A stretch of 64,000 nt of DNA from Inonotus obliquus (lineage: Eukaryota; Basidiomycota; Agaricomycetes; Hymenochaetales; Hymenochaetaceae), in the NCBI GenBank assembly GCA_032164295.1, contig JAJHTX010000003.1:1860001-1924000 (forward strand), read 5' to 3'. The stretch's first letter is position 1, and each line of letters begins with the position of its first letter. The position numbers and the translations under genes are program-made. A model generated the notes under the pieces. That model ran no database searches, had not been told where the DNA came from, and was given only the letters and a program-made list of their open reading frames with translations. Positions 8,388 to 9,173 of this stretch are shown here, piece after piece.

Positions 8388-9173
8388 ATGAGCGTCCTAC
8401 GTTGGATACAAGAGCGGTTAGCGGCAGTAATACAAGTACTAGAACAGCCCATCGTTCCCCCGACACCGCGAAGCAATATACTACGATGTTGCAACACGTG
8501 CCGCCCAGCTAAAGAACTAGCTGGAGGACTAATGCGAGAATTAATCAGAGAGATCACGTACGGAGACATAATGAACGGACAAGCCGACATAATGATATGA
8601 CGTCGATTTGTAGAACTAACCTACGACCCTAACCAACAAATGCAAAAGGCTTATGAAAGGGAGATACGAGTATTATCCTACGACGCCGGACACTTTGTAA
8701 TGATGATCGGAATACGAAACGTAGCACAGGAAGGAAGACACGAACGATGCGACACAGCTATAGTAGATGTCGACATTGTCTACAAGCGAGACCAAGCCGG
8801 AACAAACGAGAGAACTGCATATGCTTGGGGGCATTGGATAATGAATTACATAAGTCGAGGATTACCATATGGATATACCATAATGGAAATAAAGGTAGAA
8901 CAGTACGGCGGAGTAATACACCTACAAGGAGTACAAGGGATAACCCTACAACGCGCCAGGACGACGCCAGGATATACACGAGTGCAAACTATTCGAAACT
9001 GGCTGACTGTACCACGACCGATCCTACCGATACAAACGAGACCCGAAATACAAGCAAGGGGAGGACAAGAACAGATGACTCAGCAATTACCTAGAATAGC
9101 TGAATTAGATCAAGTGCCGTTACCGGCACAGGAATCAAACCTGTCTACAAGATGGTACCGCCCACTACACTAA
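8388..9173 (+). pseudogene. LTR-encoded ORF of 261 codons, one nonsense codon
   Basis: The frame starts at ATG 43 nt into the LTR and ends in TAA at 9,173. It is open except for TGA at 8,598 to 8,600, where the solo copy reads CGA. The solo LTR (56,248 to 57,033) keeps exactly the same 786-nt length but has its own stops at 56,527 (CGA in this copy) and 56,812 (CAA in this copy). Differences at codons in the first third are mostly third-position, which argues for past coding constraint. The product has a CCNTC cysteine motif near residue 45 and a conserved middle (GLPYGYTIMEIKVEQ). I recognise no family; an LTR-encoded accessory or regulatory protein is inference. Confidence 0.6.

What the first reader, a model, noticed from the sequence alone, without database searches (positions are those of the whole stretch)
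8388..9173. A 261-codon protein encoded inside the LTR
The same 786-nt frame, with identical start, stop and length, occurs in the 3' LTR and in a solo LTR 48 kb away. Each copy has different nonsense codons, all explained by C-to-T changes, and the other copy has the sense codon at each. By eye, differences in the first 70 codons favour synonymous changes. Coding LTRs are known in very few retroelements (for example the MMTV sag gene) and I know of none in fungi.
Basis: partly seen in the sequence, partly recalled or inferred. Interest (0 to 1): 0.88.

Follow-up and report, generated by a model that had tools for sequence, protein, structure and literature searches.

The report
A gene hidden inside retrotransposon repeats
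A jumping element in what looks like a mushroom-type fungus carries a real, selectively maintained protein gene wholly inside its terminal repeats, a place where almost no retroelement is known to keep a gene.

Summary
Frame 8388-9173 lies in the U3 part of a 1479-nt LTR (8345-9823) of a Ty3/gypsy chromodomain element. All 45 genomic copies examined keep its start, stop and frame; 32 have no internal stop, among them the 5' LTR of the window's own element. In 43 aligned LTRs the frame has one indel (15 nt, in phase), the rest of the LTR 12, of which 11 are not multiples of three. dN/dS is 0.11-0.18 in five between-subfamily pairs. Variants private to one element look neutral (82 of 121 non-silent, 85 expected); those shared by four or more are purged (39 of 116, 82 expected). 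A sister family, 42-45% identical, carries the frame too, and six environmental proteins are homologous. No Pfam domain, solved relative or clear fold was found. Best explanation: an accessory gene kept for the element's own spread, read from the 3' LTR, placed like MMTV sag but unrelated. Its action is not shown; a basic nucleic-acid-binding regulator is my guess. Eight paper searches showed no coding LTR in fungi.

The parts
8345..9823 (+). 3' LTR of the element (1479 nt, TGTT...AACA); downstream target duplication CAGAG at 9824-9828 matches the 5 bases before the 5' LTR outside the window
8388..9173 (+). LTR gene: 261-aa frame, wholly in U3; this copy is interrupted at codon 71, the 5' LTR copy of the same element is not
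8598..8600 (+). in-frame TGA (codon 71), in the 3' LTR of this element only
9321..9328 (+). TATATAAG box; found in 41 of 43 LTRs, downstream of the frame in each of the 41, which puts the frame in U3
   Evidence: role as promoter inferred
8336..8344 (+). polypurine tract before the 3' LTR
   Evidence: sequence; role recalled from LTR elements
56205..57684 (+). solo LTR of the same family, flanked by CTCAC repeats
   Evidence: L042
56248..57033 (+). LTR gene in the solo LTR, two internal stops (codons 94 and 188)
4207..7518 (+). pol of the same element: RT, RNase H, integrase, chromodomain
   Evidence: (Pfam)
3157..4197 (+). aspartic protease frame
2039..2977 (+). Gag with Ty3 capsid domain and zinc knuckle
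487..2085 (+). extra 532-aa frame upstream of gag, no Pfam match, N-terminal hydrophobic stretch; no stop in 15 of 16 near-full family-A copies
7613..7717 (+). predicted exon 1 of a membrane-anchored extra protein after pol
   Evidence: splice inferred
7767..8258 (+). predicted exon 2 of the same extra protein, acidic repeat; intron 7718-7766 (GT...AG, in phase) inferred

Best explanation
The frame is a true gene of the retrotransposon: a U3-encoded accessory gene for a soluble, basic protein of about 260 residues. Because it ends before the LTR's own TATA box, the 5' LTR copy is not read from the LTR promoter. I infer that the protein is made from the 3' LTR copy, at the 3' end of element transcripts, from a spliced or internally started mRNA, as recalled for MMTV sag. 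Selection keeps it through the element's replication, not through benefit to the host: once inserted, copies decay neutrally. My best guess for its action (about 40%) is a nucleic-acid-binding regulator of the element's RNA or cDNA. Shown: coding, selection, conservation in two families, position in U3. Inferred: expression route and function.
For: Pooled pN/pS 0.194 in this frame against 0.957 and 1.565 in the other two sense frames. L002 against L040: dS 0.473, dN 0.057. Frame indels: 1 event, 15 nt; rest of LTR: 12 events, 11 not multiples of three. Private variants neutral (82 of 121 non-silent, expected 85.2, p 0.55); variants shared by four or more elements purged (39 of 116, expected 81.7, p 4e-16); no stop is shared by four or more elements. 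Synonymous sites of the frame differ far more than the non-coding LTR of the same pair (dS 0.473 against 0.086), so this is not conserved DNA. Sister family: 32 matches at 42-48% identity over 195 residues or more, 15 without stop, dN/dS 0.11-0.27 in ten pairs, frame at both ends of an element whose pol is 80% and 68% identical in two parts. Six environmental homologues, E 2.2e-74 to 2.3e-36; in the three that cover the N-terminus the first Met lies within a few residues of the LTR Met. TATA box downstream of the frame in 41 of 43 LTRs. Basic (pI 9.2 and 9.5), no membrane segment, conserved CxxC.
Against: No transcript or protein evidence. One sister-family element has ATA in place of the start in both LTRs; its pol also holds two stops, so it may simply be dead. 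Two LTRs of one young family-A element share a stop, so the protein is either not needed in every copy or supplied in trans. Two decayed copies compared with each other give dN/dS 0.39. No known fold or domain supports a nucleic-acid role. Whether the environmental homologues lie in LTRs is unknown.
Confidence: 0.82

Rival explanations
1. The region is conserved as DNA or RNA (enhancer, packaging or structure) and the frame is incidental.
For: U3 regions hold promoter elements (general knowledge).
Against: Variable sites concentrate at codon third positions (131 of 261, against 72 and 58); dS 0.473 exceeds the divergence of the non-coding LTR, 0.086, for the same pair; a 15-nt in-phase deletion is tolerated; the proteins align where silent sites are saturated.
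Confidence: 0.02
2. A host gene or domesticated copy is what is selected, and LTR copies are its relics.
For: 17 of 27 copies outside the nine complete elements keep the frame unbroken.
Against: Private variants are neutral, and 15 of 18 LTRs of the nine young complete elements are unbroken. Not excluded directly: the 43 LTRs were chosen for being whole, and the short or split matches were not followed up.
Confidence: 0.04
3. The frame is the C-terminal part of a longer product, made by stop readthrough or splicing from the membrane-anchored frame just upstream.
For: In family A the upstream frame ends at 8258 and the same frame is open from there to 8388 (the open frame of 304 agrees).
Against: In the one sister element read, that frame closes before the LTR gene, and in the three environmental homologues with a covered N-terminus the first Met lies near the LTR Met.
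Confidence: 0.1
4. The protein limits new copies of the same element (self-restriction), and solo LTRs with the gene act as long-lived sources of it.
For: The gene survives conversion to solo LTRs, which are 25 of the 43 LTRs fetched; MMTV Sag from resident copies blocks new infection (PMC11998498, passages read).
Against: Private variants, 109 of 121 of them in copies outside complete elements, are neutral, so resident copies are not being kept for this; in a solo LTR the TATA box lies downstream of the frame.
Confidence: 0.12

Closest known systems
MMTV sag (mouse mammary tumour virus superantigen)
   Same: Gene encoded in the LTR; most resident two-LTR copies keep the frame (PMC11998498, passages read). 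That it lies upstream of the LTR promoter is recalled.
   Different: No match to any Pfam family; no membrane segment, whereas Sag is a type II membrane protein (passage); host is a fungus.
Lentiviral nef and foamy-virus bel/tas (recalled, not fetched)
   Same: 3' accessory genes that run into the LTR.
   Different: Here the whole gene lies inside the LTR; no glycine at position 2; no kinship detected by Pfam.
Ty3/gypsy chromoviruses of fungi, such as crapaud of Podospora
   Same: gag, RT, RNase H, integrase and chromodomain (passages of PMC10787394).
   Different: crapaud LTRs are 339-443 bp and its two frames are gag and pol; here the LTR is 1479 nt with a gene, and there are two other extra frames.
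LTR elements with additional ORFs in plants and rotifers
   Same: Extra genes besides gag-pol, some from spliced or separate transcripts (PMC7264820 and PMC5408684, passages read).
   Different: The passages I read place none of these genes inside the LTR.

Membership tests
LTR retrotransposon, Ty3/gypsy chromovirus | RT-RNase H-integrase order with chromodomain, LTRs, 5-bp target duplication | tested here: met
MMTV sag | gene located in the U3 part of the LTR | tested here: met
   frame is LTR positions 44-829, TATA box at 962-979 in 41 of 43
MMTV sag | type II transmembrane protein | tested here: not met
   highest 19-residue hydropathy 0.95 (family A) and 0.88 (sister)
MMTV sag | sequence kinship to Sag | tested here: not met
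   no Pfam family at E up to 5 for three family-A copies, one sister copy and two environmental homologues; that Pfam holds a Sag family is recalled
MMTV sag | spliced mRNA ending in the 3' LTR | not testable with these tools
   no RNA data
Lentiviral Nef | glycine at position 2 for myristoylation (recalled) | tested here: not met
   S or N at position 2 in 13 of 13
Foamy virus Bel/Tas transactivator | DNA binding and activation of the LTR promoter (recalled) | not testable with these tools
   needs an assay
Phage tail-terminator-like fold | shared fold | tested here: inconclusive

The most novel reading that the evidence does not exclude
A new family of U3-encoded accessory proteins exists in fungal LTR retrotransposons: a fold not matched here, shared by at least two diverged element families and by environmental relatives, making these elements 'complex' in the retroviral sense, with a gene duplicated in both LTRs and left behind in every solo LTR.
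Probability: 0.75. Interest if true: 0.85.

Novelty: new variant of a known kind. Interest (0 to 1): 0.78.

Why it matters
LTRs are normally treated as regulatory DNA, and the divergence of an LTR pair is used to date insertions. Here more than half of the LTR (786 of 1479 nt) is a gene under strong selection in transit and free after insertion, so solo-LTR annotation, masking of such repeats and inferences from LTR divergence need care. It shows that retrovirus-like layouts with 3' accessory genes exist in fungi, far from vertebrate immunity, and gives a tractable system to ask what such genes do for the element itself.

Tried and rejected
Chance frame: rejected. Conserved DNA: rejected. Antisense gene: reverse frame -2 shows pN/pS 0.268, but the three reverse frames hold 8 to 18 stops in the two copies checked; I read the low value as sharing the degenerate positions. 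Readthrough fusion with the upstream frame: not kept in the one sister element read. RIP as the source of the decay: of 69 private C-to-T or G-to-A changes 39 are at CpG and 9 at CpA/TpG, so methyl-CpG decay fits better; inference. Pfam (six proteins) and PHROGs (two): none at E up to 5. PDB by sequence: nothing better than E 1.2. A single-sequence protein search found none at 1e-3, the profile found six, a second round found no new one and listed three of the six. IMG/VR scans: no relative. Foldseek on two low-confidence models: PDB none at E 1e-3 or better; the viral library, second model only, one at 3e-4 (probability 0.92) with rmsd 25 over a 538-aa Pandoravirus protein, not credited. Rfam on window 1-12000: none at the gathering score. 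BLAST put two gaps into the frame of one copy (L036); the multiple alignment shows none there. A paper that the listing flagged for 'LTR ORF' in a fungus uses the phrase for pol frames (PMC12037069, passages); two other flagged papers and one concern no coding LTR (passages). Exon joins of the upstream gene used wrong boundaries and were replaced.

Full report
What was checked. The frame 8388-9173 is as described. It lies in the 3' LTR of an element whose internal region fills window 1-8344: an extra 532-aa frame, Gag, protease, pol with chromodomain, and a further extra frame. The 5' LTR starts about 1.5 kb before the window. The window is C3:1860001-1924000 of a 36.07-Mb genome in 30 contigs. 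LTR ends are set by 5-bp target duplications: of 43 full LTRs, 9 are 5' LTRs, 9 are 3' LTRs and 25 are solo, 23 of the 25 with perfect duplications; for one of the other two, L045, the start was trimmed by the search.

Copies. A DNA search listed 41 matches, 40 of 112 candidates being scored, a second with the solo LTR 41, 40 of 117 scored, so counts are lower bounds. Forty-three full LTRs were aligned; two more copies (L037, L039) with a whole frame but a broken LTR were added for the variant counts (45 copies, 36 insertions). A protein search gave 125 matches. Of the 98 covering 195 residues or more, 64 are family A (73% identity or more; 47 without stop), 32 are a sister family at 42-48% (15 without stop), and 2 at 35% carry 9 and 7 stops; the 27 shorter matches were not counted. 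Several further LTR pairs were not fetched, so the 43 are a sample.

Selection. Within the frame there is one indel event, 15 nt; in the 650 nt after it there are 12, of which 11 are not multiples of three (one apparent deletion at the very start of L045 is left out as trimming). Over 38 distinct frames of 43, pooled pN/pS is 0.194, against 0.957 and 1.565 in the other sense frames and 0.893, 0.268 and 2.133 in the reverse frames. In the five between-subfamily pairs printed dN/dS is 0.105 to 0.181; in the four within-subfamily pairs with silent changes it is 0.161 to 0.387, the highest between two decayed copies. Non-silent against silent variants: private to one element 82 against 39, shared by four or more elements 38 against 78, Fisher p 8e-8; shared by two or three, 22 against 29. 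A neutral expectation from each class's own mutation spectrum, CpG treated apart, is 70% non-silent: private 82 of 121 fits (p 0.55), shared 39 of 116 does not (p 4e-16) (its classing rule differs by one variant). So copies drift once inserted, and the lineage that transposes is under strong purifying selection: the gene serves the element. Variants are not fully independent of the family tree, which these tests do not model.

Activity. The LTR pairs of nine complete elements differ by 0 to 4 positions, so insertions are recent. The window's own element differs by three, one being the stop in its 3' LTR. One other element carries the same stop in both LTRs, so it probably arrived with a broken frame: the protein may act in trans or be dispensable for a round.

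Sister family. One sister element on C6 has the frame at both ends about 10 kb apart, pol 80% and 68% identical in two parts, the second with two stops, and the extra upstream frame 47% identical at its N-terminus. Its LTR also begins TGTTAGAAA. Over ten pairs of five sister copies dN/dS is 0.11-0.27. The LTR protein thus diverges faster than pol. In that element the start is ATA in both LTRs, unlike the four other sister copies read.

Environmental relatives. A profile of 13 natural sequences found six proteins (E 2.2e-74 to 2.3e-36) whose longest contigs are 0.6 to 1.9 kb, unnamed; the contigs could not be read, so whether they are LTRs is unknown. In the three that cover the N-terminus the first Met falls within a few residues of the LTR Met, though these starts are themselves predictions.

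The protein. About 30 kDa, pI 9.2 and 9.5, no membrane segment. Conserved: a CxxC at 35-38, RRRF near 72, DxDI-Y at 127-132, ExK at 167-169. AlphaFold2 models have mean pLDDT 59.8 and 61.5, with a better stretch (about 80-87) near residues 121-180 and a poorly predicted tail from about 205 on. No convincing fold match. The DxD and ExK residues invite thought of a nuclease, but the strand order is not typical (recalled) and I do not claim it.

Expression. TATATAAG at LTR position 962-979 in 41 of 43 LTRs lies downstream of the frame. By general knowledge of LTRs the frame is then in U3 and is transcribed from the element's promoter only in the 3' LTR. The element seems to use short introns: one predicted in the membrane-anchored frame (7718-7766) joins two frames in phase, and a TATATAA motif sits at the end of pol. 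These could yield an mRNA for the LTR gene; not shown.

Host. STE3 receptor matches at three places on one chromosome, 14 hydrophobin and 26 Zn-cluster matches point to a mushroom-forming basidiomycete; none was found in the tool's 14 control genomes, whose identity I do not know. The species is unknown.

Print. Eight searches of open-access papers brought up MMTV and foamy-virus work and no fungal coding LTR. I saw listings, and passages of PMC3248453, PMC7264820, PMC5408684, PMC10787394, PMC11998498, PMC12037069, PMC4016481, PMC11117352 and PMC1560396; most listed papers were not opened. Subscription papers and Repbase were not searched, so priority is open.

Noticed in passing
window 487-2085: An extra 532-aa frame before gag with no ATG at its start, an N-terminal hydrophobic stretch and no Pfam match; no stop in 15 of 16 near-full family-A copies. 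A possible GT...AG intron just upstream, seen in the window's element and in the seven other leaders checked, may supply its start.
   Followed up: partly
window 7613-8258: Membrane-anchored, acidic extra protein after pol, with an in-phase DE repeat whose length varies between elements and a predicted 49-nt intron.
   Followed up: partly
L053 and L058 (sister element on C6): Both LTRs have ATA where the four other sister copies read have the ATG of the LTR gene, yet the LTR frame is open; the pol of that element has two stops.
   Followed up: no
window 29600-38100: Cluster of inverted and direct repeat units of about 300-1900 nt, about 70-94% alike, some also at 16.5-17.5 kb.
   Followed up: no
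window 18765-19727 and 23359-24321: Nearly identical (99.8%) 963-nt inverted copies carrying part of a copia-like pol (the label copia-like is my reading of the translation).
   Followed up: no
G000:C5:1214362 and C6:2915036: Two 35%-identical, heavily decayed relatives of the LTR protein (9 and 7 stops), perhaps a third, extinct family.
   Followed up: no
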